Source: Mytilus galloprovincialis
Taxonomy: Eukaryota > Mollusca > Bivalvia > Mytilida > Mytilidae
DNA length: 64,000 nucleotides
NCBI RefSeq assembly: GCF_965363235.1
Contig: NC_134847.1
Coordinates: 58,498,439 to 58,562,438 of the forward strand
Direction: 5' to 3'
Made by a program: the position numbers and the translations under genes. The notes under the pieces are model-generated. The model was not told where the DNA came from. It saw only the letters and a program-made list of their open reading frames with translations, and searched no databases. Shown here piece by piece: positions 41,288-63,119 of the stretch. Position 1 is the first letter of the stretch. Every line of letters starts with the position of its first letter.

Positions 41288-41293
41288 TTTATT
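41288..41293 (-). terminator. Polyadenylation signal (AATAAA on the minus strand)
   Basis: TTTATT on the + strand, about 540 bp downstream of the stop codon of the acidic last exon. It is a candidate end for that transcript; other hexamers in the AT-rich 3' region are possible. Confidence 0.35.
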
Positions 41294-41830: not shown

Positions 41831-41949
41831 CTAAATGTCTTTTTCTGACAATTCTATGCTTTCACCAAGATCTTCCTCCTCAGATTCTACAATAGAACCA
41901 TCTTCTTTATCCATGTCATCCTCTTTAGAGGTTTTAATCTCATCGCCAC
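41831..41949 (-). CDS. Acidic C-terminal last exon (ZEB-like or SMARCE1)
   Basis: Acceptor TTTTCAG at 41956-41950, phase 1. Encodes GDEIKTSKEDDMDKEDGS then IVESEEEDLGESIELSEKDI and a TAG stop. Vertebrate ZEB proteins end in a long acidic tail after the last zinc fingers, and SMARCE1 also has an acidic C-terminus, so composition does not decide. The phase fits both the zinc-finger exon (46823-47005) and the last SMARCE1 exon (50458-50677): joining directly to SMARCE1 gives 1659 nt of continuous frame for the part in the window. Confidence 0.7.
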
Positions 41950-41999
41950 CTGAAAATATAACAACCTTACTTATTTCTGTATTTCTATAGGCATATTTT

Positions 42000-43480
42000 T
42001 ATAAAAAAAAAACTCCAAACTTATTTTTTTTTCAAGGTAAAATATGAAACATTTTTTTTTTTAATATTTATAAAATTACACAACAGCTCAACCATTTCTT
42101 TGACATTACAGATTATTATGTTAGAAAAATTTCTACTACTTCTCATTCTTGCATATTTTATTTCTTATATGTTTATCTTGTATGTTTAAAAGAGATTTTT
42201 TGTTCATTTGATTAATTTCACAATATTTCTGATGTCAGCATGGTGAGCCCTTGTGTTTTTTTAATAATGCTTATCAACCATCGAAATCTAGAGATAATAT
42301 CATCCAATACAAGAAGCATTTTAAACTTTAAAAAGAGGACATAGGTTCAACCAATATAAAGGAACAACATCTTGGCTTCCAGAATTTCTGTTCATTTATA
42401 CTTTCATGAAAAAAACTGTTTGATCCAAAATACAAGTCTTTACCAAACTGAAGATGGTTGCAATTTCATAATATCTGTAGTTAGTTTAATACCTGAAGTT
42501 CTTTGGATAAAAACATTTCAGTAATTTTGTTGTAACATAAATAGTTGTATCGAATGAAATTACAATGAAACCTGTTCAACTTTAAGGCAAAATTCAGTTT
42601 AAAATTATTGCCAATGCCAAGTAACAACAATAGCATTCAACGTTTTTTTGTCTCCAATTGAAAAAGCTATGTGAATATTTCATACCTTGAATATAAAAAG
42701 GAATTACACTCTTAGTGCTAATAATTCAAATTAGTTTGCATATATGTAAAGAGACATATATTTAGTTGGAATACTTTGATTAATTATCATTTAGAAGAAA
42801 CAGGTTCCACTGTAAATACACGATATATACCCAGCATAAATAGATAAAACAACAGGATTTATAGCATAACAGTTGATCACATTTACTTTTCAGACAAATT
42901 TTAGATTCTGACCATTGCTTGATTTACACAAGGTGCATCACAGAAAATACATTAGTGTTGTGAGACATAAAGCTAGTGTTAGTAGCATCAAATTTAAAAT
43001 GGTGAATAGGTACCAATGTCATCTACTGTATACGAATAGAACAGAAGGATGGCTTTCAAAAAAAGGTTATTTGCAAAGAAGAATTCAGAACAAATTTGAA
43101 GCTTTCTTATCTAACTTTGAAGATTCATTCAGCTTACTTATTATTTATTATTTTTAACTTCTGCACTTGCAAATGTAATGACTTTCAAAATCAGTTATAC
43201 AGCCTACTTCAATCAATTGGAAAATTTTAAGAAATCCTACAACTTTTTACTATTCCTTTCTTTCAGACAAATTTTGTCATATATGTTTTAAACAAAAGAT
43301 GTCTAATTGGTTTTGTTAACTTTTAGGTATACTGACCTACACTTTAACATTAATTGATTTGATTTCACTAATATATAGGTATGTTTCTATTTCACATTAT
43401 ATGGGTTAGTTCAAGGTTATTAAAAGACTGATTGACCAAAAAACTGAAGGTGTTTTTCTCTTTTCTTAATCATCCGTCTG
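42000..43480. other. Intron, no feature recognised
   Basis: Intronic, AT-rich, between the acidic last exon and the zinc-finger exon. A plus-strand ORF of 80 codons (42915-43157) has no support. Confidence 0.4.
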
Positions 43481-43554
43481 AAAGTTTCATTTCACTCAAA
43501 GAGACATTAAGTTACGATCTGTAAGCTAATGTATTCCCAAAAGTTTCTATCTAA

Positions 43555-43940
43555 AGTAACAATCACCTTGAACTTAGACTTATTTACTACAAAATCATTA
43601 AGCTTGTTCCCCTTCTGTCTGCATTAGTTTCATTCTAATCAGTCAAAGGAAAGTAAAGTTACCACCTAGAAACCATTTATAAGAACACTATTTTTGGACT
43701 TGTGAGCCCATGGAGCAAAATCAATAGATGTCTTACCTACCACCATATCTTCCATCAGCATAAGTTATATTTCATCAGGAAACAAAAATGAAAGATACAT
43801 TTGGGAAACCAATTTTCAAATATATATCTTAAAAACAGTGACCTTCAACTTTGACTCCTATATCAATAGGCTTTTCCCCCTTCCCTCTATTGTTCATAGC
43901 TACAAGTTTCATTCCAATCAGGCAAGGGAAACTCAAGCTT
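43555..43940 (+). repeat. Pair of related repeats with a TGACCTT-type core
   Basis: Two diverged copies, about 43560-43655 and 43838-43935, roughly 280 bp apart. Shared order: ACCTT(G/C)AACTT, a CAATAGGCTT-like piece, CCCCTTC(C/T), GTTTCATTC(C/T)AATCAG and GGAAA. The type is common in mollusc introns. Confidence 0.45.
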
Positions 43941-44096
43941 TTGATCATCAAAGATTTCTTAACCTTTCCTTTGTCTTTGCACTGCTATCAAGCAAAAGAC
44001 ACCAAATTTACCATCCGTAATTCATTCCAAATCAACAAATTGTTTTCATGAGGTATCATTGTTATATTAAAAAAAAAATGTTTAAAAGCCCCCAAC

Positions 44097-44820
44097 TGAT
44101 GTATATAAAATGCTTTGCTGAGCACAGCCTGATACGACTGCAGTGGTCGCACCCTGAACAGTTGGTGCAAGTTTAGACACAATATTCAAGCTTGATACTG
44201 TCTGAATTTATTTCCCACAAACTCAATCCCAGCTTTCCCTTTGTGGTATGGTACCTTGCTGTACAATTTCAGAGAGATCCATACAATTGACCTCAAGTAA
44301 TTATCTGGAAACTAGACAAATGCTTCTTTTTGGCCCCTAATTCCTGAACATTTTGGGCAATTACCCCCAAAATCCAATCCCAGCCTTCCCTTTATGTTGT
44401 GATACCTTGCATTACAATTGTAGAGAGATCCATACACTTAAACACAAGTTAATGTCTGAAAACTAGAAAATTGTGTGTTTTTTGTAAGTTTTTTGTCCCT
44501 TATTCCTGAACCTTTGGGCAATTACTCCCAAGGTCAATCCCAGCCTTCCCTTTGTGATATGGAACCTAATTGTACAATTTCATACAGGTCCATACACTAA
44601 CACATATTTTATTGCCTGGAAACTATAAAAATGCTTATTTTAACTCCTTTTGGGCACCTAATTCCTTACACTGTTGGGACCTTAACCCCCAAAATCAATC
44701 CCAACCTTCCTATTGTGGAATTTCATAGAGATCTACTTAAACTAAAGTTGTTGTTCGGAAACCATGTGTCTTCAGATGCGGACGACGACGACGTGATACC
44801 AATATACAACCGCAATTGAG
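44097..44820. repeat. Interspersed repeat, family G, with an internal ~155-bp tandem array
   Basis: Starts GAGCACAGCCTGATACGACT and CTGAACAGTTGGTGCAAG, and ends ATGCGGACGACGACGACGTG then ATACAACCGCAA. Inside are four tandem units beginning CAATCCCA at about 44224, 44375, 44535 and 44695, each with a TTCCTGAAC...GGGCAATTA-like segment. The head recurs at 63175-63310. Confidence 0.6.
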
Positions 44821-44824
44821 TTTC

Positions 44825-46530
44825 TGCAGATTTTTTTGAAAGAGGTGGAAACAGTAAAAAAGTATTGGAAATCCTATGCATGTTTCAAAGCAACTGCTCT
44901 GTTTTAATGATGTTTTCCCATATTTTTCACACCATTTTTACCTCCATTCTGAAAATCTGCCCCATATACATATGTCCGAATTAACCGTATTGAAAAAAAT
45001 GAAACGTATTGTACTGTATTTTATTGCTGGTCTTTAAAAAAAAAATTATTTATTGCAGGTTGAGTCAATACTTTTTATGTTATAAACAATTGTCATTTTT
45101 TTTTTTATATTATTAAGCTTGATTTATTTAAACCTTAGAAAATAATGTTCTGGATTTCTTGTTGAAACAGTTTCTAAATAGCTAAAATGTTTTAAGTACC
45201 AATTCATAAAAACTGAACATTCTGATAGTTCTGCTTTTGCACAACACAACCTAACATAAAATGCTGTGTTCTTTGCTTAAATGTAAAACCAAAATATTCT
45301 TACAGAGAATTAAATTATTATACAGCATACATTTTTCATACCAACCTACATATTGATTCCAACAACGTCCTAGGCAAATGAGAGTTTAAAGGAGCCAACA
45401 ACACTAACACACAATATTGTCAAAGACAGTAGATAGTAAATGAAATAAATATGTTTTTATACATAACATTTTAAGACAAAGTATCAAAATTTAAGTGTAG
45501 AGGTGAATTAGTGTTTGTAGGTCTATCGTTAGATGTTTAGTAGGATTAGTCACAACACACGACACAACACATTGGTTGGATAAAGGCGAAGAACAAAGAT
45601 GTGTCCTAAAACAGAAAAAAAAATTTTTTAATATTATTCCCTTATTTTGTGCAATAACATGTCTATAATGATATAAAGGCACCATATTGCCATACTGTAA
45701 TGAAATAAGAGTGAATTTAAAAATTAACCTCGGAACATTTTATATCTCATTTTTTTTCAATTTAGATGAACTTTAAAATTTATGCCAATAAATAGCTACA
45801 AGAATCATGAATATTCAAAGGTTCTCAATAAAAATAATGAGATGAGGTATGATTGTCAATATAATAACTATCCACCAAAGACCACAGTGACCTGTAGTTG
45901 TTTACATTGTTTTACTTTGTTCTTCAGTGAATTGTTTTTACCTCATCCTCTTATTTTTGTATTGAACAAAAAAAAAATGTTCCCAATAATATGAATTTAT
46001 ATCAATTGGACTTTTTTTTGGTTATTTTGAAAATAGATTTTTTTTTAAATTTCAATCCTTATGCCATTATCTTAGAAAGTGAAATGTGCACAGATTCTGT
46101 TTTTATAAGTTTGTACTATATCCCTGAAATTTCTATCACAAAGATAGATACACTTGTAAATAAAAGTTATTTCCTGGAAAGAAAAATCTACATCAACAAA
46201 ATATTTACAATGATTGCAATATGCAACGGACTTTACAACATATGCAAATTCTGTGATGCACCAGTTTCAAGACAATGCAATGTTACCATGCTGACAGACA
46301 ACAAATAAACAAGCAATAAACACAAACAAACAAAAGAAAAAACAACAATTGTTATGCTAAAAATGTTAATGCAAAAAGTAAAGAAAAAATCATTCCAAGA
46401 GAGATTTGGTTTTTAAAATGTGGCATAGTCTTCTACTGTTACAGAGGAGTACACCACTTTTTGTAAGTTTCCCTAATACGTTTTTTGTTTTCAATCAAAA
46501 TGTAGTTCTGGTGATAAGTGAAATGCAATG
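44825..46530. other. Intron, no supported exon
   Basis: AT-rich. A minus-strand acceptor-like TTTTTTCTGTTTTAG near 45608 opens a short phase-1 frame to a stop, but nothing supports it as an exon. The plus-strand ORFs (45782-46308) are low-complexity. Confidence 0.4.
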
Positions 46531-46537
46531 AGTGAAT

Positions 46538-46569
46538 TTAACGTGGAGGGTTCCAATCATTTCCACCAC
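46538..46569 (-). CDS. Possible alternative last exon of the zinc-finger gene
   Basis: A T-rich tract ending TTTAATAG precedes a phase-1 reading that gives GGGNDWNPPR and a TAA stop when joined to the zinc-finger exon. It lies only about 250 bp downstream of that exon. If used, it would replace the acidic tail by ten residues. Support is only the acceptor and the matching phase. Confidence 0.35.
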
Positions 46570-46822
46570 CTATTAAACATAAACAAAAACATTTATAAAT
46601 ATTAACAGATTTAACAGTAATTCATAAATTTGGAGAGGCCTAATAAAACTCTGTTTTGAACGAATTTCGAATATGAAAAAATTTGATTACAGTCTAATAT
46701 CCAGATTTATTTTAAGCAAATTAAATAAATGCCAACAGGATCAATATGACAATCTTGGCCATATGGAAATGCATTAGAACCCTTCATTGGGCCAATGTGA
46801 TGAATGATTTTCTCACCGTTAC

Positions 46823-47005
46823 CGCCAGAGGTTTTACATAAGCGGTGGTTCATGTGTTGGCTGTAAGATCCGGAGTGAGAGAAGCGTTTGAGGCACCGTT
46901 TACACTGGAAGGGTTTCTCTCCAGTATGGAGGCGCTTGTGTTCCGTCATATGGTGCTTGTGTTTGAACGCCTTACCACAGATATCACAAGGGTACCGACG
47001 GGGAC
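46823..47005 (-). CDS. ZEB/zfh1-type exon with the last two C2H2 zinc fingers
   Basis: Acceptor TTTTTAG at 47012-47006, phase 1. Encodes [40 protein letters not shown] and [18 protein letters not shown]. These are two complete C2H2 fingers: C-x2-C...H-x3-H, a TGEKPFQC linker, and C-x2-C...H-x4-H. The KAFKHKHH and [15 protein letters not shown] signatures are those of the C-terminal fingers of ZEB1/ZEB2 and Drosophila zfh-1, E-box-binding transcription repressors. The exon begins where, as I recall, vertebrate ZEB1 also has an intron (just before the [16 protein letters not shown] finger). There are two possible donors six bases apart, GTAACG after 46823 and GTGAGA after 46817; both keep phase 1. 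The preceding ZEB exons are not found within 47.0-50.4 kb. Confidence 0.8.
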
Positions 47006-47009
47006 CTAA

Positions 47010-48100
47010 AAATTAAAATAACATATCACTGGGGTACAAATGGGAGCTTGGCAAAAGATTTGATATCACGAAGGGTGAAAATTTGAATTTTTAAACTTTC
47101 TTCAATTCTTACTAACTAATATCACAGGGCTACTAGCAATGAGAGACATAAATGACATAATATACTAGGGATGTGGCACAAATATAAGGGGACAAAAGCC
47201 AAAGTTAAACAAACATTTCATGGTTGAGTTTATTTCATTTTCTTCTTTATTTTCAATTTCCAAAGCTGAAAGGGCATTAAATGGATGTTGGAATAAGTTC
47301 TACAACTTGGAAGATGCAAAAGCTTGATACTTATTAATGATATCTAATGTTTGCATAAATAATTTTATCTTTAAATCATGATGTTAATGTCAATCTTTAC
47401 CTTTAAAAATGAAAGAACTGACTTTGAAGATTCATATTACATCCCCTATTCATGGCGAACTTGCATCATCTATGTGCATTTTAGTTTGTTAATTTTGGTG
47501 CAATAAATTTTAGTACTTAAATGTGTAAAACCCAAAATAATGGTCATTAGTACTGTTAATCAGCAAATAGTTTCTTTTCCTTTTTTTTTCTTAAATCCAT
47601 GGAGTATTTGATCCATTATTTTCATAAAATATTGCTTTGAGCGTAAAAACGTTAATGAAAGCATTGTCAGGTTTTAGCAAAATTTAAGCCAATATCAATT
47701 GGCAGGTGTTAGAACATAGATGTAAAAATTTTAAGACAGTTATCAGCAATAAATTACTAATCCAAATCTCATCTTTTTATTTTTTTGGCCCGAAAATAAA
47801 ATTAAAGATGAGCAGGACTGAAATTTATATTTTTCTAAAAAATGGGATATACATAACTTATTATGCAGATTAATAATTCACTCATAGGCACTAGTTTCCT
47901 TAATTTGACTTGGGAGTAGGAAAATTACCTAATGAATACTTCAACAATTTGCTTCTTAACAAATGTGCAATTGTGCAAAAATACTTAAAAAATAACAGAA
48001 AAAAGTATAAAAACCAAATGAAAATTAAATCAGATAATTGAAGTAAATGCAATATAACAAAATAAACTCAAAAGATAAAGTGCACAAAGTAAAAGAGAAG
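47010..48100. other. Intron or intergenic, no supported exon
   Basis: I looked on the minus strand for a preceding zinc-finger exon (C-x2-C...H and a TG-linker) and found none here or up to 50.4 kb. Confidence 0.5.
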
Positions 48101-48107
48101 ATTAGTC

Positions 48108-48276
48108 AAATATCAGTCTGCACGGTTAGCCACTAGTCCGATGCCCCAGACTAGTAAAATGTCATTCGGACTAGTAAGGTTTTGCAAAACTTTGTTTGGC
48201 CCAATAAGAAAAATGTCAGAATATTGGTCTTCGGACTAGTAGTTGAAAAAGTTTTTGGTGCAGACTGAAATATAAC
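48108..48276. repeat. Small inverted-repeat element (MITE-like)
   Basis: The left end ATATCAGTCTGCAC...ACTAGTCCGA is matched in inverted order by the right end (CGGACTAGTAG...GTGCAGACTGAAATAT). GGACTAGTA and GACTAGTAA motifs repeat inside. About 170 bp, non-coding. Confidence 0.55.
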
Positions 48277-48279
48277 CAA

Positions 48280-50455
48280 ATGGAAAAAAATAAAATAAAC
48301 TGAAATGTACAGAATAATATTGTGTTGTTGTCTGTTGCATTCAAAATATACAAACTGTAAAATTCACATTTCTTTATCAGCAAATCTGTTAGTAGTGTTA
48401 AAATGTTAATATCATGCATAAAATAACATAAAACCACCATAAAACACATCTAAGTCTTCAATTAAAGTATAATCCATCATAATTTGATAAAATAGTATAA
48501 AATATTGATTTATTAAGCCAAATGCCTGTAATAATCTTATCTAAAGTACTTAAATTTTCAAATTTTCATGCTTATGCAATACAATGTCACAAAGATTTCT
48601 TGCATTCCAAGACTTTTGTTTAATAAAACTATAGAACTCAATTATCAACTCAATTTTGGGTGTATTTATTTGAAATATCTTCTTCATTTTCTCTCTTTAT
48701 ATTTTCATATTGACATTTGCCAAAATCAGAGACATAGGAACAAAGTTTTTCCATCTTGACTCTCCTAAATTAAAAAGGATAATTTTTGCAGTGAGCTTTG
48801 TACAAGCTTTAAACAGCTTGTGTTTTCGAATCCTCCTATCAAATTATTTGGTTATAAAAAGTTTCAAAACAAATATCCTCCATGCTTCTTTAAAATTATT
48901 ATGACATATCAAATGATGACCTTAGATGGGTTTTCATAGCAAAAACAAAGCTGTTCCCTTGCAAATTATAAGAACTAAAACTAAACAAAATTAAAATAAA
49001 ATGTGTGTATCCAACTGGATTAGTCTGGAAATTCTGGAAGTATTGTATGATCTCAAACATGCTGTCATTCAAACTCCATTCTATAAACAACGTTCATGTC
49101 AATTCATTCTTGAATTCCCCCTTCTAAGTAAACTACTGCTGTAAAAAATCCTTAGCATTTGTTCAACCATAAATAGGGGATGTCCCTTACTAGGAAATAT
49201 TTATGAATGATTAAATAAAAGGAAAATTTACTGTGCTGTTAGTTTTATATTTTCCCTATTGATGATGCAAAATAACATAATCATCATACCCCAAAAAAAC
49301 ATAAATTCTAATTATCTAAATAAAAATTCTATCTTTTTTTTATTATTTCTTTTTAACTTGCAAGGTACAGTTTGTCAAATTCAATGGCATGCAATATAAA
49401 TATCCATCCACAAACTGACATTACTTCTCATGCCAAAAAATGTTAGTCACAGAATTCATTGTCATGCCTTTTATTATCCAACATGCGTTAAAACTATCTA
49501 CTTCATTTAGCAATGGCCAAGTCCTAAATTAAGCTATTCACTAGCAAATGATGCCTTATACAACTAATTCATCTATCTGGGGTACCACAGTGTATATAAA
49601 CACTAAAATTTAATGTGGCTATCTATTGCAATTCAGAAAAACAATACAATATTACAATGGTTAATAGAAATTGTGCTTACTACCATCCTACTTGGAAGTC
49701 CGATAGTAATGAATTACAAATACACCTAAACAATATTAATGTTATTGCAGTCACAAATCTGTGTTTATAAATTACTTAATCACTGCTAGTATGTGTGTCG
49801 GTTTTTTTCTTAATTCTAAAAGATTTCATTTATATGTTTGTGCATTTCATTCAATAATGGAATTATATATAATTAAAATAATGTTTGCAGTATCAGATTT
49901 ATCTACATCTATCTAGAATTTATATATAGTTAACCAATTGTATAATAATCAAGTGGACCCTGAAATGAGAGTTCTGTTTTGATAGTGACATTTTTACTTG
50001 AATCAAGAACTAAGAAGTTTGTGTATGAAGAAAAAGAAAATGATACGCGACTATCTTACCCTGTTTTGATTTTTTTGCTTTTCTAATGACTACAAGTGTT
50101 CCAATTTTATTTTTATCCATGTTCTATGCCTTCACCTAACCAGTTATACTTGTCCATTTTCCTTTGTTCAGCAATATTTTCAATTTATATTTGAGTTGAT
50201 GAATATTTTCATATTGAGCTTAATGAACATTTCTGTAAACCAGAGTATGACCTTGAATCTGAAGCAATGTACAACAAACAATATGGAGACCGGATTATGA
50301 GAATTCTTTTGATAGGGAGATAAGTTGAGTAAATAGAGTTAACAAAAGTATGAAAATGTGGACAAGTATAACTATATCCTACACAACCTATCCTGATAAT
50401 GATCTCTACTTATAAAAAGAAAATCCACATGCGCAAGCAAGCACAAACACAACAT
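48280..50455. other. Intron or intergenic, no supported exon
   Basis: AT-rich. A minus-strand stretch at about 50056-50078 (AAAGCAAAAAAATCAAAAC between TTAG and GGGTAAGA) could be a lysine-rich micro-exon, but its acceptor is weak. I do not call it. Confidence 0.4.
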
Positions 50456-50457
50456 AC

Positions 50458-53400
50458 TTTCTTTCCTGTCTTCCCTCTTTTTCTTTCTATGAGCTGGTTT
50501 TTTGCTCTTCTTTTGAGGAGAATTGTCCTCCTGTGACTCTTGGCTATCTGACATCATACTCTTATCTGGAGACATGCCATCTGGTGATGACTTAGCTGAG
50601 TCATCAGGTGACATAGAATTAAAGGATTCATCCCCACCACCTTCCATACCTGCTGCCATGCCATCCTGAGATAAATCCTGAAAAAATGGCATGCAATGTA
50701 TATATATATCAATAGTCCACCAAAAAGTCCACTAGAAATCAAAAAGGCATATTTCCTTAAAAAAATGTGATTATAGTAAAAATATTAGTCAGAACAAATT
50801 TTTATACTTAATCTGATAGCAGTGAAACTGAATGAATCAACAAAAAGATAGTAATTGTTGAATTATTTATGTAAGCGCTACCCTTTATTAATCCTTTATT
50901 AATATTTTGAAATATTATTTTTTTTAAATTTTTTAAAATATTCAATGTTACTGTATGTTTGTTTCAAAGTATGAAGCATCTATAGGCTAGTACAATGATT
51001 ACCTCTGTTTTCTGAGAATCAGGAGAATCAATGCTACCCATTTCCATCATTTGTTGTTGGTTTGCCTGTTCCATCGAAGGGTCCTGAAATAAGAAATTAT
51101 CACAATATACAGTCAGTAAATAAGTTATCAGAGAAAAATAACACGCATGTGTTATTACAGACACTTTCATGAGTTGTCTACTCTTTTTTCCTTAATCTGT
51201 AATAACATATGTTTGTTATCAGTTAAATATATCATAAATATTTTATCTTTAATAGGCACTTGGGAATTCTTAAAAACTTTGCACAGTAGCTTAATATATT
51301 TCCTTGATAACTAATTTTCTAATTCTATTGATACAATTTTGATCAACCATGGTAAATCAATGAGACAAGGCCTTTAAGGGAAAACTAAGCTGCAATAACA
51401 AGGCTTAGTTATTACAAGCGTGAAACTTACTATATGAGAGTAAATGAGACACTTGGAATCTTGCACAGTGCCTCATTACAAGCTCTGATCATCATTCTTA
51501 CAATGAATTGAAATACATTGTTATGCAAGTCAGAGCAAAGCCTTTAAAGAGATATAGAAAAGCTGTAATAACACCCTTTGGTTATTGCAGGAATATATTT
51601 TTTGTAATAACATAGGTGTACTATGCATGATTGCTAAACTATGAGCTGTTATATCTTTGCAAAGATTAGTATACATAAAGAAAATTATAATAGAACTGGA
51701 GAAAAATTTAACAAAATAAAGGTTGTATATTTTCCCTTTGAAACATGTAACATACATATGTTATCACAGGTTTTTTTTTATATTTTAGCTCACAATAACA
51801 ACATGTATGTTATTTTTCTCTTACATGTCTAATAACTTAATTTAAGTTAGACCCTTGACTGATATACCATCTGATCATTTCTTTACCATCAGTAACATAA
51901 ATACAAGGATAAAACTTATCATATCTTTTAACAATACCTACACATATTTTTTAACAATACCTTATTACAGACTTGAAAACACTTGAAAATACAAGCCAGA
52001 AAAATATTGACACATGATCTTAGAGTTGAAGTTTAACAACTAATTTCTAATTCATGCCTTAAGAGTTGAAATATATCTACTCATTTTTTAATTCATATTA
52101 GTCATATAAATCACATTGTATTGCTACTATTTAAGTATAACAACCTGTGGCATCATAGGCTGTGGCTGTATAACAGTTTGTGGCTGTATCATGTTCTGTT
52201 GTGGCATTACATTCTGTGGCATCATATTCTGATTCTGCATGATTTGTTGTGGCTGTAACATGTTCTGTTGAGGCACCACGTTCGGCATTGGCATCATTTG
52301 TGGCTGTTGTGGCACTGCATTTGGTGAATTCATCATTGGCTGATTTGGGACCATATTCTGGTTTGAAACTGGTGGCTGTGCTGGCATTACACCTTGGTTC
52401 ATGACTTGTGGCAAATTTGCCATTACTTGTCCCTATTGCAATAATCAAGATTTGTTATTTTGTATGTAACAACTTCATACACATTTGGATAATGTTATCA
52501 GTTTCAAAACTCTTTGCTTAGTCTGATTGTTGACTTTTATACAGCAGAATTTAATTAATATTTACAGGACTATTCTGCATTTACACTAGCTTTTTCTCTA
52601 CATCATTTTTTTTTTGTATCAAACTTTCTTCACAATTTAGTATTATAAACATCATACGTTATTATGATATTATTTAATGTATGTATTAGTTTAACAAAAT
52701 TTGAAAGTGATGTCTTGTTAAAATTACCTTATTCTTTACTGAAGAATTTTTGTTCATGTTTTTCAATGAGACAAGATAAGAATAAACAATGATCCTACAT
52801 ATATGTCTGACCACAATCTTTAGGATAATTTACTACCACATGAGTATTTTTACCTCTGAAACAATAGGAGGTGGTGGTACAGGATTATCTAACTGATGCT
52901 GTCTTTCTTCTTCCTCCCTTTTTAATCTCTCTTCTTCTTCACGTTTTATTCTCTCCTCCTCTTCCTTCTTTCTTTTTTCTGCTAGCTCTGCTTGTTTTTT
53001 CTTTTCTTCTTCTTGCTGTTGTAAATACTGTATGTGTCTTTGCTTCAGTTCTTCTTTGGCTTTGACCATCATTGTATTGAACATGTCATCACTTATCTGT
53101 GGTTTATTTTCACACAGCTGTAAATAAAGAATATTATTGACTGTATGTGTGCATGTGTATCACTGTGTATTATTATGAGAATTAGCTATACTCATATAGA
53201 TGCTTTACTACCTTTGACATCTTAGTGTAACCCTCAAAAGAAGCTGTTCCCTAACATTTAATAATGACAAGATCTTAAAACAAGTCTTTTTTTCCATTCA
53301 TGAACCTCAAATATGTTGCTAGGCTATGTTATCAGTGTAACAATTGTATCATCAAGATTATAACAAACAAGAAAATAAATAAATTTTCTAGGACTTTGAA

Positions 53401-56400
53401 GCTTACTTATAGCTACTCTTTCAATATCACATCATAAACTTACTTTTTTCAATTCTTCTTGAAATTGTTCACTAGCCTCAGAAAATCTCTTTTTCTTTGC
53501 TTCATGCTTTTCTTCAATTGTTTGTAATTCGTTTTCTAATTTTTTCTGTAAAAAAAAGACAAAATGATATCAACCTAAAAAAATAATACCTTGTGTCACC
53601 CGATCCCTTAAATTTTTAATAAATTTTTACTTCTTATATATATAATTTTTTCATGATTATAGCAGTCATAGTATTGTATAGGACAGATTTGATTTTACCA
53701 GACTATGCCTTACTTGGATTTATAGTCTAAACATACATTATCACTCTAATTGCTAATAATTATCAGTACTACGTATAATTTCTTTCAGGACTGTATGTGA
53801 CAGGATGCAAAAACAAAGACACAGATTTCATAAAATGAAGATTTACTGTAAATATAACAGCTTACAAACTTTGGTAACCTCCCAAAAATTGATAACGACT
53901 AAGAATTCTATGAAAATGTTTATACCTGATGCATGGTTAATGATTGCACTTGACGTTTTAGTACTCCCATTCTGCCTGTTGTAACTACTGTTCGTATATC
54001 TGGTACCACTGTTTCACTGAATATGTCATTTATAAGTCTATGATTACGTAGATATCTTGCATGGGCTATATGTTTCACTGAAAATCCATCATCTGGATCT
54101 ACAAAAAATAAATGATATTTTATTATAACGTAAAAGAGATATTTCTATGGTTATAAACATATAAAAAGTTAATCACAATATTTTCATGTCTGTACCATAT
54201 CAATAGCTTCATTGAACAGATAATAAACCAAATGGTTTATTTTTGTAATTGTGTTTAACTTGTTCAAAACTTATCTAGATATTGTTGAGCTTGAGGTCTG
54301 AAGTGGATTTGTGACAATTGTGGTTTCTGTTCTTGCTTTGATGATTTGCTATCAAATTGAAGTACCCTCTAAATAGGTAATTAACTTCATCCAGAAAATT
54401 CATATATTTTGTTAAAATATAAACATTGACAGTCATAATAGTAGAGGTAAAAAATAAGAAGTCTGCATTGTAAACCCAACATTATATTATAATTGCAGTG
54501 CTATAAAAGATTTGAAAAGCTTTGACTGACAAGTTGTACAATGTTTTAATTGATACCGCCTTATAAAAGGTTACGCATTACATTAACCTTAATCTTATTT
54601 CTTTCTGCGTCAGAAGTTGCATAAGGCCTCAAGTGAAAAGTTTCAAATTTAATATTAATATACTCTCCTATCTGCATTTTCAAAGACTAGATTTAAAAGT
54701 TGAATGTTCATTTGTTTTCCGCTCTATAAAATTAAACCAACCTTCATCCTCATCAGCTTGCTGTATACTTATTCTCCCTTGGGCCTCCATTTTAGCTGCC
54801 TGTGAAATAAAGAATATGATGCATGTGTAGCAAATATTTTTGTCAAGATTTAAATTTTATTATTTCCCTGAAAGATAATATCCAGGAAATTAAAACACCA
54901 TAGAAATTTAAACCTACATAGAATATTACTTTAACATACTGGAAACCTTGAAATTTAATCCCCATAAATTAAAAGACTAAGATGTAACAAAAAATATTAA
55001 CCCCAGGAAACTGATGTTTCTACAGTATTAATCATAGCAGCCATTCTACTAAACAAGTGTCTTTAATGAACAATTTGTTCTCTCTTCCGAGAATGATTAA
55101 CATAACAATTTAATTCTAAAACATGGAAAACTTGAAAACTGATTATTTGATTAGAGTGTGAATAAAGGGACAGAGATCCTGGGTATGTGTCAATGAGATT
55201 GTAACCCACCAACAAAACTAACAAAATTGCTTTGGTGATTGGTTTTATCAAAAGGTCTTTATAGATCACAAACAAAATTTAATTGTTTGCTTATAATTCC
55301 TTATGAGAAGATATATTAGCAAATGTAAACTATATAAATACTAAATGGAAAATTATAAATATATATCATATATCAAATATATAACTGTGAAGAAAATTCG
55401 AATAAAGTTGTTTTACATTTGTCATTTCTGGGCTTTTTATAGTGTTGTACTGTGACCTATAATTGTTAATTTCAGTGTCATTTGAATTTTGAGGAGAGTT
55501 TTCTCATTGGCAATCTTGAAACATCTTCTTTTATATATTTACTTAATGCAATGTAGTTTAATATACTTGTACAGTTTCAGGAAAATGTAACTTACTTGTT
55601 GACCCCTAGGTGTTCTTTGTTCTCTTTGCTTCTGTTGTTCTTCTTCCATAGCAGCCTCAGCAGCAGCTGGAAATAACAAAATAACATGCTACATGTACAT
55701 TGTATAAATTACATCCCCATATTTCAAAACTATAATCAGTAAACTCAACTTTTACTTAATATTAACATTCAATTCTTTATCCAGTAGTTATAAATTTAAA
55801 ACCTTTGTACAATAGTTTTATCTCATATTTATTTTTAATATGTAACGATTTTCTATTTGTAAATGTAAAGTTCCTATGGTTCATTATTTACATTAAATTT
55901 AAAAGATATTGACAAAAGAATAAACAAAAATAGTTCTTTTATAAAAGAAAGTGTTGAGTAATTATCAAATATGTTCTTACCTTTTCCTTTAGCTGCAACC
56001 CACGCTTGGTATGCTGAGGAGTTATGATACAGTTTCATTGCTTCATTGTACTGAGCCTGTAAAAAACAACAAGTTTTTAATTACAATTTCAATATTGATT
56101 AAACAATAAAACAAAATTAAATTTTACATACAATTGTAAATCGTCATTATGCTGATTCCATGTTTTCTCAAAGTGGCTAATATCTTATGAACTTAATGAT
56201 ATCTTTTTCAACTCTTGATCATGATCATGAAAATTGTGTAGTTTAAAAAATCAGATAAATAGTTATTATATATCAACTTTTCTTTATGCTGGTAAATATC
56301 AATTACCCTGATTAGTAAAGGGACATTCTGTCAGTACATAAAGAGAAATATGTGGATTCTACCTTTTCTGATTCATATTCATCCATAAATTCCTGTTTTT

Positions 56401-59400
56401 GAGATTCATCTAAATCTCTCCACATTTGTCCAATGATCTTGCCTATCTCCCATAGCTTCAAATCTGGATTAGAATTCTTTACACTATCCCATATCTACAA
56501 AGAAAATTCACCATTTTATATGTGTGCTTCTTTCACTGAAATTTAATTATTACTCCATACTAAAACCATGTGTATTCATACATGTGATGGACTGTGAAAC
56601 TCAGATCAGGAGATTTGGAAATTTTGGTCAGGAGATTAGGACTCAGATCAGGAGGTTTTTTATCGACATAAATTTTGTCGTAAATGTAACCGTATGATGT
56701 AATCAAAGAGCAGAATGCTCTGAGGGATACGATTGCCATATAGTTTTCATTGACACATGTATAGCAGTTCTGCCAACTTTTCATTAAGCAAATTCGTGAG
56801 ATTTGGCCAAAATAGAAAAGATCAAAGAGGAAAAAAATGATCCAAGGATACTGCTGCAAAAAAGCATGAACATGCGTGAGTCTCACGCATTTTTGGCAGC
56901 CCTGGCCTTGATAGTCCAAATAATTATGACGTCTTGAAAGGCTATTATATTTTTTTTTCTTTCACGCCTTACTTCGACGTGGAAGTAAGGCTTCAAAGAA
57001 AAAAATTATAATAGCCTTCCAAGACGTCATAATTATTTGGACTATGGCCTTGAAGGCATAAAACTTTGCTCAGTGCTTGGAGCACAAAAATCATGCTCGA
57101 AACAAGAAATCAAGCAATTTCATTGGTTGATTTTCGAGTATGAGTACAAAAAAACTGACTCGAAAGTTTTATGACCGCAAGGCCAGGTACAGCTGGATAG
57201 TAGAATTAATTGCATAACAGTGTGGTCGACAGTAAAAAGTTTGTAGGTTGTAACTTGTTTGTCAACGGCTATGATTTTATGCTCACCCAGCCTGTCAGAG
57301 GCCTTCCAGTGGGGATTGAAATATTCACTTGTTACACATTCCGATACATAAAATGAAACTTTCTTTTTACAAAGCTTGAAAGGAATTTGTTTTAAATATT
57401 TATTATAATCATCACATACAACCGTGTCATTTATAAGAATAATAATGTTCAGAGATGATATTATTTACTAATAATAAAAAAATAGGTTTATCCATTGTAA
57501 AAAAAACTATTAAGTTGATGGGGTTAATTCACAAAATATCTCATTGATTAAGAGCACAACTACTACGGTGTGATCATTTAAGAATGGCCTACTATTTATT
57601 CAATGCGTATACATGTGGGTTTTGTTTGTGAAGAGTTCTGGAGAATTAAAAAATCGTTTGATTTCTTTGTTTAATACCATAAAACGATTCATTCTTTCAG
57701 ATATTTGTCACTTTGCCTTATCTTCAAGTCCAACACAATTTCTCACGTTTCTTACAAAACTTATATTCTTGTGATGTATTCTTTTGTTGGAAAAAAATGT
57801 ATTGATATAGATAGATATAGGAAGATGTGGTATGAGTGCCAATGAGACAACTCTCCTCCCAAGTAATAATTCATAAAAGTAAATCATTATAGGTCAAGGT
57901 ACGACCTGCAACACGGAGCCTTGGCTCACATCGAACAGCAAGTTATAGAGGGCCCCAAAACTACTAGTGTAAAACCATTCAAACGGGAAAACCAACGAGA
58001 AACGAAAAACACATATGAACTACATAAACAGACGACATCATGCATTGTAACTTTTAAAGCCAATTAAGTAAAAAAAATAATCTGAAAGAACGTGCGATAT
58101 CATATTAGGAAAATTGATGGTCAAACCATAACAAAAAATCAAGTAAAGAATTTTAAGTATTCAACCTTTATAGCTTGCTGTTCGGTGTGAGCCAAGACTC
58201 CGTGTTGAAGGCCATTTTTATTTATTTTCAAATTACAAAGGTTATTCCTGATTAGTATTTTTAATTATTTTATTTAGGCGTTTAGAACCTTTGGTGACCT
58301 CACAGTTTAAATTTCTATGATAAGTACGTCGTGAGCAGTGGGCATTACAGACGAACGTTCACCTAATTTCCCCCAGTCAATGAATGGCCATAGCTACACT
58401 GTCATGAATTTCATTCTATTATTTTCAAAACTAATTCAACTGCACATGCAAAGGTAATATAAATCTGAATAGTCACTCAACTTTAAAAATTGCTAATCCC
58501 GGATACAAGTGTACGAGCAATGTACTTATTGTGTTTTATTTGTGTGCTATCAATTCCAAGTTTACTTTCCACAGCAGTCACTGAGAGAGAGAGAAGGTAT
58601 TTCACTTCATAGTTCGAGATTACTCTGATGTCCGACGGCTGATTTGCCAGACAAGCTGGGACCGTGGGGGACTTTTATGCTAGTAGACTTAAATTACAAA
58701 CTTAAATAGTCCCAGTCCCATATATTATATCGAGTATTACTGGATGCCGAATTGAATTTTAAATATATAGGTGCCGATTTGACTTTTTCTATGTGTGCCG
58801 ATTTGACCAGGTGCATGCCGATTTGACTTGTACCCAGTAATCTGACAGACTCGGGACTATTCACTTCGTATCTTATCACCGTTAATTCTAGGAGGAACCC
58901 CATTTCCCAGTCCCGTATATTATATCAAATATTTTTGGATGCCGAATTGACTTTTAAATAGGTGCCGATTTGACTAGATGCCGATTTAACCAGGTGCCGA
59001 TTTGACTTTTTCTATGGGTGCCGATTTGACTTCTACCCAGTAATCTCGGACTATTCACTTCGTATCTTATGACTTATCACCGTTAATTCTAGGAGGAACC
59101 CCATTTCTTAATCTTTAATTGTTAATTTCCTTTGGGTCAGTGGGCATGAATCCTTCCGTACACACTCCTCTGTTTAAATTGAGATCGTTCTTAATATAAT
59201 ACGACGTTCATCGACATCTGTTGAATCTGTTCCATACCAAACTCCTCCTGTAGACAAAATGATAAACATCATAGTAACAACAAAGGGTGTAGAAAAAATA
59301 CTAAAAAATATTAATGCATCAAAAGCGATGGGCCCTGATGGTATACATCCAAGAGTACTTAAAGAACTGGCACCTAACATATCAGAGGTAATGGCTCACT

Positions 59401-62400
59401 TTTTCCAGCAATCCATCAACAGAGGAACCATCCCAGACGAATGGAAAAATGCTAATATATGCCCACTATTCAAAAAGAACGACAGAACCATCCCAAGCAA
59501 TTACAGACCAGTTTCCCTAACATGTATCACTTGTAAATTACTAGAACACATCATTTGCTCAAACCTAATGCAGCACTTTGAAAAACACAACATCCTAAAT
59601 AGCCGACAACATGCATTTAGAAGAAGACACAGCTGTGAAACCCAACTTATCAACGTTATACATGACTGGGCAACTGCTATTGATAAAAGGAAACAAACAG
59701 ATATATTTATTTTGGATTTTGAAAAAGCTTTTGACACCGTACCGCACGAGCTCTTAAAAAGTAAACTTCACAAATATGTCGTGCCCAAAAACATCTTAAA
59801 TTGGATTGACGCTTTTCTATCTAAAAGATCTCAGTGTGTGATAGTAAACGGAGTTAAATCGGAAACATCATCAGTCCTATCAGGAGTTCCTCAAGGAACG
59901 GTTCTTGGTCCAATCCTATTTCTGGTCCATATCAACGACATAGCAGATAACGTAACATCAGAAATTAGGCTGTTTGCAGACGACTGTGTATGCTACAGAG
60001 AAATTAATACTGAAGATGACTGTGCTGAACTACAGAAGGATATTGATACCCTAGGTAACTGGGCGACAGATTGGGGAATGAGATTTCAACCAGTTAAATG
60101 CAACATGATGACATTGAGTCGCAAGAAGAAAACAACATCATTTAAATACACCTTGAAAAATACGGAACTCCAATTTCTAACATCAATAAAATATCTAGGA
60201 GTTAACATCACGAATGATCTACACTGGGGTAAGCACATAGAGGAGATATGCAATAAATCTTACAGGACATTAGGTTTACTAAAAAGAAATCTATCCGCAT
60301 GTCCACTTGAAGTTAAACTCCAGGCCTATAAAGGACTGATACGACCTGTCCTAGAATATGCAAGCACTGCCTGGGACCCACATCAACTATATCTCCAAGA
60401 CCAACTGGAAAATGTACAGAAAAGAGCGGCTAGGTTTATAACATCAAACTACACTGATTACGAACCAGGAAGTATGACAGCGATTTTAGATCAGCTACAA
60501 TTACCCTCACTGAAAGACCGTCGTACACAAAACAGATTAATTCTTTTCTGCAAGAATATACATGGTCAAGCAAACAGTACTTACCATCTGACCAACTGAA
60601 AAAACCATCCCGTACAACCAAGAACATGCACAGTCAACATTTCCTCCGACTTCAAACAAAAACAGACACGTTAAAATACAGTTTTATCCCAAATACCATT
60701 AAAGACGGAAACCTACTACCACCGGATATCTTCACCAAAATTCAGACAGCAGAAGAACCAGCTAAAACCTTTAGTGAAATTGTAAGGGGGGTCCAACTTA
60801 AGTAAATTACTTGACGCACGCGCGGTGTATTAATATCCTTGGATGTTTCACCGTAAACCTATCAAGATCAAGATCAAAGATCATCTAACGAGTTTTTTCT
60901 TCGACGATTTAGACGGGAAATACTTCTGAAAGGGAGACAACTCGAAACGATAATATGGAAGACTCCATTTCGGCTAAAGGGGTGTTATAGGTTCATTGAT
61001 TTTAATTTAAATGATGCATATGATTTTAAATTATGCAACAACATTATTAAACCCTCAATAGCAGGCAGACATAGAAAGAATCTAATGAGTTTCAAATTAA
61101 TTAATAAGCGGGGAATCCAGAACAACCACTCAATCTGATACCCCTTGAAATCAAGAAACTATACGCATGCGCATTAATACATAAACAAAGCCGCGACTTG
61201 CGATTTGGAACAAGAACGTTTATTTAATTTATGATATGATGAATGAGTCTCAATTTCTTTATGAGAGTACAGTATCAGTTTCATAACGGTAAAATATAGA
61301 AAACTCCACTTCAGTTCTTATATGACAGAAATAGAATTATCGGAATTCAAAGAACTCTCGCATTTATCTAAACTGGGGAATCCCTCTGACGTGTTTCTAA
61401 ATTTATAAAAACACTAAATATAAATACTGCTTAATTCTGATTTTCCGTGTTGTTAAAAACACGCATATAAGTCGAGTGAAAAATCAAACATGAAGATTAT
61501 GAGAAGAACATTACAGGAAAGTTGTTTATGTTCAATCCTTTTGCTTGTTTTTACCTTTTAAAGCAAGACAATCATAAGAATCTGAGATGTTGCTGAATGT
61601 TTAGAATAAAACGGTTGACGTGAGGGAATGAGCCCTGAGTCAACGGTAAAAGTCTACAGATTGCTTAAAAGCAATCGTATCCCAAAAATTGTGTTTTTTC
61701 TTCAAATTTCCATCAAATTGTAATATGTTTATAGTACCCTTATGGCCTTTCTATTTGAATGAAAATAAAATATTAAGAAGAATCTGTTTCTTGTTTTGTT
61801 TTTGATAATTGAGTGTTCACTGCTTTCAAATAAATCATTATATTTATTTATCTTATCTGTATAGATTTGTATTCAAGTCTCCATCTCCTTATCATTGGTA
61901 ACTGTATAGACAAATAAGAAAGAAATATGCTATACATGTATATTTGCAACATGAAAAATTAATAAGAAAAATAACAAACACTAACAATAGTATTGCATGG
62001 ATTCCTTATGAAAATCATATATTTCTTGAAAACTTAAAGACAAAAACAGTGTAAAACTTTTTGCTATCTTAAGCTAAATCAATAAAATCTTATATACTGG
62101 CATAGACAATTTTCAATCTCAGGGTTTTATTAGATATTAAAATGTACATTTTGTGTATTCCACACACAAAAGTTGTAGACAGACTTACCATATAAACTTT
62201 GATTTAATCCTTGAAAGAAGTATAGATTGCTAAAATAATTTATAAATTTATATTTTTTATATGTCCCAATACATTTAAATTCATTTAATTACCATCCTTT
62301 TATGATTATTTGATTAAAATATTTATTCATTTATAGTCTTTTTACAATTAACATTTTTAAAAGCAAAATGACTTAAAACAGGATAAATCAAAGGGAAGTA

Positions 62401-63119
62401 ACCAAATACACAAAGTTTTTATAACACAACGGCAGTTAGTTAGCCAGAGTAAACATCGTTGATTACCACCCAAGCTGTCAAGGGAAGCCATGTAATTATA
62501 CTTCTTCTTTGATTTACAGGTAAAATTTAACACAGGTGTCAATTACACCTGTACGTAGTAAGAAATTATCAAATATGATGGCTGAAAATTTTCATTCATG
62601 AAATATTTCATACACAGGAGTTTTTTCTGCTAAACGGGAGGACGGGAGGAGACCCCTGAAAACGGGATTATTGTACTCCCGTCGGGAGGTTCACATGTAT
62701 GTGTATTCTACATGTATATCCAGGAAACCACAATCAATGGCTCATATATGCAATTGAAAATGAAAAAGCTCTTTTTAAATCAGTGCAGCAGTATTGACAC
62801 ACTGAAAATATTAATATGTAAAGGTAGACAAAATTATCCCTTATCAGATATTTACATACTGTAAGTCATAATCCAAGATGCTTACAATATGAGTTCTTAC
62901 AATAAATGCTACTTTTTCGTCTATTTGAAAGTGTTAACAGACTCCAGACTATTTTGTTTCTAATTATAACTGTATAATAAAATTTCCTGAACACAAGTGT
63001 TTTTCAAACAGTATATAAATAGAATAGAGATGTTTGTCACATACTTTCCTGCTATATCTCATGTAAGGCATTAATGGCTTGTCTGGTGCCTTAGGTGCTT
63101 TTGGTGCTCGGCTGTCAGA
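50458..63119 (-). CDS. SMARCE1: SMARCE1/BAF57, HMG-box subunit of the BAF (SWI/SNF) complex; 5' end outside window
   Basis: Eleven exons in transcript order: 63045-63119, 56363-56494, 55981-56056, 55596-55666, 54742-54799, 53926-54098, 53444-53545, 52854-53117, 52145-52432, 51003-51083, 50458-50677 (1540 nt, ending phase 1). The first three cover the HMG box ([13 protein letters not shown], then [20 protein letters not shown] and [20 protein letters not shown]). Next come [16 protein letters not shown], the [16 protein letters not shown] block and the coiled coil ([20 protein letters not shown]), all as in vertebrate BAF57. Then follow a charged helix of KREEEER units, an M/P/Q/N-rich exon and a serine-rich exon ending [18 protein letters not shown]. 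The N-terminal exon(s) lie beyond the right edge. The protein acts in the nucleus, binding DNA through the HMG box. Two donors are weak (GTTGGT, GTTGTT). The terminal exon is uncertain; see 41831-41949. Confidence 0.93.
51180..51835. repeat. Diverged tandem repeats with (T/A)AATAAC palindromes
   Basis: Between SMARCE1 exons. A unit of about 170 bp recurs (AGGCCTTTAAGGGAAAACTA near 51369, AAGCCTTTAAAGAGATATAG near 51539). Each unit is followed by a small palindrome such as AATAACAAGGCTTAGTTATT or GTAATAACACCCTTTGGTTA. Related TAACATATGTTTGTTA and AACAACATGTATGTTATT motifs lie on either side. Confidence 0.45.
56905..57190. repeat. Two adjoining fold-back elements
   Basis: The first has arms about 56906-56970 and 56988-57052: TAGTCCAAATAATTATGACG, then TCTT(G)GAAAGGCTATTATA and the exact complement order. 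The second has arms about 57041-57065 (GGCCTTGAAGGCATAAAAC) and 57160-57184 (GTTTTATGACCGCAAGGCC). The right edge of the first is the left edge of the second, so one sits against or inside the other. In a SMARCE1 intron. Confidence 0.7.
57813..58036. repeat. Interspersed repeat, family C (shorter copy)
   Basis: Contains GATATAGGAAGATGTGGTAT, AACACGGAGCCTTGGCTCAC and ACTAGTGTAAAACCATTCAA. An inverted 50-bp scrap of the same segment lies 130 bp on (58165-58215, GTGTGAGCCAAGACTCCGTG). In a SMARCE1 intron. Confidence 0.6.
58709..59105 (+). repeat. 198-bp tandem duplication containing a TGCCGATTTGAC minisatellite
   Basis: Copy 1 is 58709-58906 and copy 2 is 58907-59105, both starting CCCAGTCCC(A/G)TATATTATA and ending GGAGGAACCCCATTT. 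Inside copy 1 the motif (G)TGCCGA(T/A)TTGA occurs four times; inside copy 2 five times. Both are followed by TACCCAGTAATCT. It lies immediately 5' of the LINE, on the same strand as the LINE. Confidence 0.7.
59160..60890 (+). mobile_element. 5'-truncated non-LTR retrotransposon (LINE, Jockey/CR1/L2-like reverse transcriptase)
   Basis: ORF 59259-60599 (446 codons), frame open slightly upstream. RT motifs in order: [72 protein letters not shown] (catalytic ADD) and [17 protein letters not shown]. No AP endonuclease domain is present upstream, so the copy is 5'-truncated. Near 60555 a one-base shift moves the C-terminus to another frame, which continues as [19 protein letters not shown] to a stop at 60803-60805. 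A (GATCAA)-like run at 60862-60885 may mark the 3' tail. It lies in the largest SMARCE1 intron, antisense to that gene. The clade within the Jockey group is not certain. Confidence 0.85.
60895..63040. other. SMARCE1 intron, mostly unrecognised
   Basis: AT-rich intron. Contains a short GC-richer patch (62630-62700) with ACGGGAGG repeated directly and inverted (CTCCCGTCGGGAGG). No exon or RNA gene seen. Confidence 0.4.

What the first reader, a model, noticed from the sequence alone, without database searches (positions are those of the whole stretch)
41831..63119. ZEB-type zinc-finger exon lies downstream of SMARCE1 on the same strand in a compatible phase
The last SMARCE1 exon ends in phase 1. 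The zinc-finger exon and the acidic last exon both begin in phase 1, and the zinc-finger exon ends in phase 1. So SMARCE1-acid, SMARCE1-fingers-acid and ZEB-fingers-acid transcripts are all frame-consistent. No earlier ZEB exon is found between 47.0 and 50.4 kb. Either SMARCE1 is nested on the same strand inside a ZEB intron, or the locus makes a chromatin-remodeller/zinc-finger hybrid, or exons have been moved.
Basis: partly seen in the sequence, partly recalled or inferred. Interest (0 to 1): 0.7.

Follow-up and report, generated by a model that had tools for sequence, protein, structure and literature searches.

The report
ZEB zinc-finger exon inside SMARCE1 gene
In what looks like a bivalve genome, an old and well-preserved copy of the DNA-binding exon of the ZEB transcription factor sits, in the right orientation and reading frame, in the last intron of the gene for a chromatin-remodelling subunit, so the gene may make a remodeller with ZEB's DNA-reading fingers, although no RNA has yet shown this.

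Summary
The minus strand carries SMARCE1: 11 exons, 63119-50458, open for 513 codons. The last one ends in phase 1. A finger exon (47005 to 46817 or 46823) and an acidic final exon (41949-41831) follow on the same strand, all in frame.

"SMARCE1 nested in a ZEB intron" is effectively refuted. The only ZEB gene found lies on contig C2, with its own pair exon 80% identical to the window's. No other ZEB part was recognised in the window or 200 kb upstream. The window exon is a relocated paralogous copy of ZEB's last exon: same 5' boundary and phase, N-versus-C tree split 97/99, pN 0.14 against pS 0.92, so it is old and constrained. Two more such copies (C9, C11) also begin in phase 1 and have phase-1 donors.

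The exon cannot start translation of both fingers, its splice sites score like SMARCE1's, and the only recognised nearby coding exon able to feed it is SMARCE1's. Best reading: a cassette giving SMARCE1 ZEB's CACCT-reading fingers. Not shown: any RNA. Rival: a tiny separate mini-ZEB gene sharing the acidic exon.

The parts
50458..63119 (-). SMARCE1 gene, 11 exons visible in the window: 63119-63045, 56494-56363, 56056-55981, 55666-55596, 54799-54742, 54098-53926, 53545-53444, 53117-52854, 52432-52145, 51083-51003, 50677-50458; N-terminal exons beyond 63119 not found
   Evidence: Continuous 513-codon frame with GT-AG at every junction; human SMARCE1 in PDB 6lth_Q E 1.2e-90; HMG box PF00505 6.2e-17; all 5 SMARCE1 matches in the assembly lie here
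50458..50677 (-). last visible SMARCE1 exon before the finger exon; ends in phase 1 with a basic stretch ([20 protein letters not shown])
46817..47005 (-).
41831..41949 (-). acidic terminal exon, 38 residues after the junction codon, stop codon 41833-41831; an AATAAA at 41293 on the minus strand downstream
   Evidence: the only match in the assembly is itself
41950..50457 (-). last SMARCE1 intron, phase 1, holding the finger exon; no other coding peak on the minus strand in a scan of limited sensitivity

Best explanation
A copy of the last exon of a ZEB-type gene (the two C-terminal fingers that read CACCT) came to lie in the phase-1 last intron of SMARCE1 on the same strand. It begins in phase 1 where the ZEB exon begins, and it has a donor in phase 1, so it can be included between SMARCE1's basic exon and its acidic final exon without breaking the frame. 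The gene would then make two proteins: ordinary SMARCE1 with an acidic tail, and SMARCE1 with two ZEB fingers before that tail. The finger form would give the BAF remodelling complex a built-in ability to settle at E2-box (CACCT[G]) sites. Shown: exon anatomy, phases, splice-site quality, ancestry, constraint, separate ZEB gene. Inferred: splicing of the finger exon to SMARCE1, the acidic exon being SMARCE1's, incorporation into BAF, CACCT binding.
For: SMARCE1 exons form one frame up to a phase-1 donor and join both later exons in frame. The finger exon cannot begin translation of both fingers: an in-frame stop lies just 5' of the acceptor and the first in-frame ATG is inside the first finger, so it needs an upstream coding exon ending in phase 1. 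A codon-usage scan that recovered 7 of 11 SMARCE1 exons and the acidic exon found no other coding peak on the minus strand between 50.4 and 41.95 kb. Its acceptor (97.3rd percentile) and donor (99.7th) are within the range of SMARCE1's own (10 acceptors 86.7-99.9, 11 donors 79.5-99.9). pN 0.136 against pS 0.92 relative to ZEB's own exon: a working exon, not debris. Finger contact positions (-1,2,3,6: HHHE and HGSQ) equal those of the C2 ZEB pair, read by eye. The acidic exon gave no match within about 11 kb after ZEB's pair exon, ZEB's pair exon has no good donor so appears terminal there, and no other last exon of SMARCE1 was seen, so the acidic exon is most simply SMARCE1's. Of the C9 and C11 finger loci, only the pair was recognised near the window in the rows printed.
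Against: No RNA of any kind. The codon scan scores the finger exon itself below zero (-2.8), missed 4 of 11 SMARCE1 exons and, at C9, did not list a 291-codon frame that was in its own training set, so an unseen exon could feed the fingers. One possible start exon (50120-50060, 20 residues, donor score 4.94) exists in the interval, 3 at a laxer threshold, against 0 and 1 on the opposite strand. The C9 and C11 copies also lack a recognisable upstream coding exon in the roughly 10 kb read, where only weak peaks (6.3-8.7) appear, which suggests such exons may follow tiny start exons. The last SMARCE1 exon plus acidic exon shows no match to any PDB chain, human SMARCE1 included, at E up to 10. No relative's genome was available to show that the linkage is conserved.
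Confidence: 0.58

Rival explanations
1. A mini-ZEB gene nested in SMARCE1's last intron: its own promoter and a tiny start exon between 47.0 and 50.4 kb (or a distant one) splice to the finger exon and then to the acidic exon, making a protein of roughly 100-120 residues with two CACCT-reading fingers and an acidic tail that could compete with ZEB at its sites. SMARCE1 skips the finger exon.
For: One start-exon candidate with a good phase-1 donor at 50120-50060. C9 and C11 copies likewise have no recognisable upstream coding exon in the stretch read. The acidic exon fits the finger exon's phase.
Against: Candidate start exons are hardly more frequent than on the opposite strand (3 against 1 at the lax threshold, 1 against 0 at the strict one). 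SMARCE1 would have to share the acidic exon, or end by reading into intron-like sequence. A strong exon inside a transcribed SMARCE1 intron would be expected to be spliced into SMARCE1 as well (inference).
Confidence: 0.24
2. The finger and acidic exons are the 3' part of a larger ZEB-like paralogue whose 5' exons lie far upstream, with SMARCE1 nested in its intron.
For: The exon is a ZEB-type paralogue and two other copies appear to be in larger genes; C11 has homeodomain exons downstream.
Against: No significant match to ZEB N-fingers, homeodomain or first C-finger in the window or 200 kb upstream. Other gene-like frames (DEAH-helicase-like, coatomer-like; names by eye) lie on the same strand about 45-70 kb further up. 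The only ZEB homeodomain plus first C-finger locus found is C2.
Confidence: 0.08
3. A dormant exon: a transposed ZEB-type exon that is no longer, or hardly, spliced into any mRNA.
For: No transcript evidence exists. Neutral copies can lie in introns.
Against: Saturated synonymous sites with few amino-acid changes, intact zinc ligands and contact residues, an open frame and both splice sites intact with a strong donor all point to selection. Part of that constraint could have acted before the exon arrived here.
Confidence: 0.1

Closest known systems
ZEB1/ZEB2 (ZFHX1; zfh1 of flies), C-terminal finger cluster
   Same: The exon encodes the last two fingers of the C cluster, 80% identical to this genome's ZEB and 75% to human ZEB1 (recalled sequence) over 51 residues, with the same 5' intron position and phase as the C2 gene. 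ZEB clusters bind CACCT(G) (passage seen in PMC8304685).
   Different: No N cluster, homeodomain or first C-finger recognised at this locus; the pair has a good donor and looks internal, not terminal, and an acidic exon follows that was not found at the C2 ZEB locus.
SMARCE1/BAF57, HMG-box subunit of the BAF (SWI/SNF) complex
   Same: HMG box and following region align with human SMARCE1 (PDB 6lth_Q, E 1.2e-90); one locus found.
   Different: An in-frame zinc-finger exon and a basic stretch before the acidic tail. I know of no SMARCE1 with zinc fingers (recall); PMC searches: 0 papers, and none by title among the 8 of 105 listed.
ZEB1-BRG1 partnership at E-cadherin (Sanchez-Tillo 2010, as summarised in PMC11895388; passages seen)
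   Same: ZEB fingers bring SWI/SNF to target sites.
   Different: There two proteins meet; here the fingers would be part of a subunit of the complex.
Exon shuffling of symmetrical 1-1 exons
   Same: A phase 1-1 exon in a phase-1 intron keeps the frame.
   Different: The classical cases are extracellular modules (recalled); here a nuclear DNA-binding module in a chromatin remodeller.

Membership tests
ZEB (ZFHX1) transcription factor gene | N-terminal C2H2 finger cluster | tested here: not met
   no significant match in window plus 200 kb upstream other than to the pair itself; present on C2
ZEB (ZFHX1) transcription factor gene | central homeodomain | tested here: not met
   no significant match here; found on C2
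ZEB (ZFHX1) transcription factor gene | C-terminal cluster with first finger plus the FKHKHH and FSHSGSYS pair | tested here: not met
   only the pair was found; the first finger gives no significant match other than to the pair's own finger
ZEB (ZFHX1) transcription factor gene | CtBP motif PLDLS | not tested
   seen in the C2 frame; not searched for at the window locus
ZEB C-terminal finger-pair module (exon, not gene) | same intron boundary and phase, contact residues HHHE/HGSQ, clusters with ZEB C pairs | tested here: met
   residues read by eye
ZEB C-terminal finger-pair module (exon, not gene) | binds CACCT(G) | not testable with these tools
   inferred from identical contact positions
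SMARCE1 (BAF57) | HMG box and SMARCE1-specific following region | tested here: met
SMARCE1 (BAF57) | acidic C-terminus in the acidic exon | tested here: inconclusive
   frame and splice sites fit, no sequence match to human SMARCE1
SMARCE1-ZEB finger hybrid | mRNA joining 50458 to 47005 | not testable with these tools
   no RNA data held

The most novel reading that the evidence does not exclude
A core BAF subunit has captured the minimal CACCT-reading module of ZEB as a cassette exon, so alternative splicing switches the remodeller between general and ZEB-site-directed forms: a natural fusion of two proteins that act together in vertebrates (ZEB1 and the SWI/SNF complex).
Probability: 0.45. 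Interest if true: 0.8.

Novelty: new variant of a known kind. Interest (0 to 1): 0.56.

Why it matters
If transcribed as a hybrid, it would be a natural fusion of a SWI/SNF subunit with the DNA-binding module of a repressor that recruits SWI/SNF in vertebrates. That would support the functional link and offer a splicing-controlled way to aim a remodeller. It would also show repeated movement of one ZEB-type exon: three dispersed copies were found besides ZEB itself, all starting in phase 1 and with phase-1 donors.

Tried and rejected
SMARCE1 nested in a ZEB intron: rejected, because ZEB is on C2 with its own pair exon. Misassembled fragment of ZEB: rejected, because the exon differs from the C2 exon at nearly all synonymous sites and the flanks (44.5-49.0 kb) match the C2 and C9/C11 stretches only in the exon (132-146 bp) apart from two short matches of 44 and 72 bp. 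Part of a nearby ZEB-like paralogue: 104 frames of the C9 and C11 loci searched in the 264-kb region gave, in the 40 rows printed, only the finger pair plus hits that by eye look like interspersed repeats; the two C11 homeodomains gave nothing below E 1.

Led nowhere: viral-contig scan for the finger pair (8 pattern matches, none confirmed); Rfam and tRNA scans of the window (nothing); single-sequence AlphaFold of the exon (mean pLDDT 58.8, not used); PDB search of the C-terminal exons (nothing); PDB search with the fingers, which returned generic C2H2 proteins in the 60 rows shown of 233; recalled human SMARCE1 N-terminus against the region, whose only significant match was the 63.1-kb exon. 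Literature, listings only: 0 papers for SMARCE1+ZEB+mollusc, SMARCE1+bivalve, SMARCE1+oyster; others (10 of 12 listed; 15 of 32; 15 of 7,856, none of the listed holding SMARCE1; 12 of 13; 8 of 21; 5 of 5; 8 of 105) listed no title on such a hybrid.

Caveats on my own steps: splice matrices are approximate textbook frequencies from memory; the acceptor of exon 50677 was scored one base off (at 50676) and is not used, and the first exon's acceptor was scored at 63111 rather than 63119; the codon model was trained on 7 own-genome frames, two of them from C9 and one from C11, and its plus-strand run also gave 5 peaks (two antisense shadows of SMARCE1 exons, three in or near the reverse-transcriptase-like stretch); the tree has 7 short rows and its C clade is unresolved; one search scored 150 of 3586 first-look candidates and one search scored 150 of 236, so copy counts are lower bounds.
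Full report
WHAT IS THERE. The window is G000:C10:58498439-58562438 of an unnamed 1.38-Gb genome in 331 contigs. On the minus strand, exons at 63119-63045, 56494-56363, 56056-55981, 55666-55596, 54799-54742, 54098-53926, 53545-53444, 53117-52854, 52432-52145, 51083-51003 and 50677-50458 join with GT-AG at each junction into a 513-codon frame. The conserved part matches human SMARCE1 (PDB 6lth_Q, E 1.2e-90) and has an HMG box (PF00505, 6.2e-17). All 5 SMARCE1 matches in the assembly lie here. Exons 5' of 63119 were not found.

Downstream on the same strand come the finger exon, 47005 to 46823 or 46817, and the acidic exon, 41949 to the stop codon at 41833-41831. SMARCE1-acid (552 codons from 63119) and SMARCE1-fingers-acid (615 codons) are open to the same stop. 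The six-base-later donor is the stronger one (99.7th against 97.2nd percentile of GTs on that strand).

IT IS NOT THE ZEB GENE. A search of the whole assembly with the finger pair (150 of 3586 first-look candidates scored) gave, after the window itself, C2:84600729 (80% identity), C11:61288348 (69%), C9:13898394 (68%) and C2:84595977 (65%); the other matches listed are at 58% or below. C2 holds a ZEB gene: N-fingers, homeodomain and PLDLS-type motifs in one long frame, a first C-finger exon ending in phase 1 (TCA G|gtaaga) and the pair exon starting in phase 1. A search with the C2 homeodomain plus first C-finger gave 17 matches: C2 at 93% and 98%, and 15 others at 31-42%, in the homeodomain part of the query. 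In the window plus 200 kb upstream, neither recalled vertebrate ZEB stretches nor the C2 stretches give a significant ZEB match except to the pair; the next best is E 0.017. So SMARCE1 is not nested in ZEB.

ANCESTRY AND CONSTRAINT. In all four pair exons (C2, C10 window, C9, C11) the acceptor lies at exactly the same codon and phase. The N-terminal pair of C2 lies inside a long frame without that intron. In a 7-row tree (51 columns, two human rows recalled) the N pairs split from the C pairs at 97/99; within the C pairs nothing is resolved. The window exon therefore most likely descends from the C-terminal pair. Against the C2 exon pN is 0.136 and pS 0.92; against C11 pS is 0.72, the only one of ten pairs not saturated. 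The copy is old and its protein sequence has been kept. The C2 exon has no good donor (best score -2.15) and appears to be ZEB's last exon, whereas the window, C9 and C11 copies have donors in phase 1 (best scores 5.68, 2.15 and 6.27). Finger contact positions (-1, 2, 3, 6) read HHHE and HGSQ in all four copies (by eye) and in recalled human ZEB1. ZEB clusters bind CACCT(G) (passage seen in PMC8304685).

WHO USES THE EXON. It cannot start translation of both fingers: a stop lies just upstream in frame and the first ATG is inside the first finger. It must be spliced to a coding exon ending in phase 1. A codon-usage scan over 36-64 kb gave on the minus strand 9 peaks: 7 of 11 SMARCE1 exons, the acidic exon and one overlapping-frame shadow; the plus strand gave 5, two of them antisense shadows of SMARCE1 exons and the rest in or near a reverse-transcriptase-like stretch. 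The scan is blind to the finger exon itself (-2.8) and to a 291-codon frame at C9 that was in its training set, so it can miss exons. Start-exon candidates in 47.0-50.4 kb with a phase-1 donor number 3 on the minus strand against 1 on the plus strand (lax), or 1 against 0 (strict). The finger exon's splice sites score within the range of SMARCE1's own. The acidic exon is unique in the assembly (1 match) and not found in about 11 kb after the C2 pair exon, while no other end of SMARCE1 was seen. The simplest reading is SMARCE1 with an optional finger exon. The main rival is a tiny gene inside the intron that shares the acidic exon; that the C9 and C11 copies also lack recognisable upstream coding exons in the roughly 10 kb read (weak peaks of 6.3-8.7 only) keeps this alive.

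HOW IT WOULD WORK. Inferred: inclusion of the exon places two CACCT-reading fingers between SMARCE1's basic stretch and acidic tail, so BAF complexes with this isoform would be drawn to ZEB-type sites. In vertebrates ZEB1 interacts with BRG1 to repress E-cadherin (PMC11895388, passages seen), so the two activities already meet in one pathway.

NOVELTY. Searches of the held papers for SMARCE1 with ZEB and mollusc, with bivalve and with oyster returned 0 papers each; a wider search with C2H2 zinc finger, fusion and domain architecture listed 8 of 105 papers, none titled on such a hybrid. Subscription papers are not held and annotated relatives' genomes could not be checked. I call it a new variant of a known kind (exon shuffling) with an unusual pair of partners, pending RNA.

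Noticed in passing
window 8754-9500, 22213-22863, 30247-30993 (+): Three frames of the same kind in tandem (similar by eye); the first matches Pfam PHYHIP_C at 3.5e-36.
   Followed up: partly
window 59178-60599 (+): 473-residue reverse-transcriptase-like open frame (by eye), antisense in the SMARCE1 intron between 63045 and 56494.
   Followed up: no
window 32319-33248 (+): 309-residue frame that looks like a Penelope-type reverse transcriptase (recalled resemblance, not tested).
   Followed up: no
L041 and L031 (C11:61278500-61288499), minus strand: ZEB-type finger-pair exon followed by two homeodomain frames (Pfam 9.4e-5, just below the cut-off, and 1.4e-16) and a DUF3504-like frame below its cut-off: an unfamiliar zinc-finger multi-homeodomain arrangement. 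Another homeodomain match lies at C11:61270550.
   Followed up: partly
L039, L032 and L038 (C9:13888500-13908499), minus strand: ZEB-type finger-pair exon with a phase-1 donor, then a frame of 376 residues without a Pfam match (query typed inexactly at its start) and a further finger-like frame.
   Followed up: partly
window 50458-50677 (-): The SMARCE1 exon before the finger exon ends in a strongly basic stretch that human SMARCE1 does not have (human sequence recalled).
   Followed up: no
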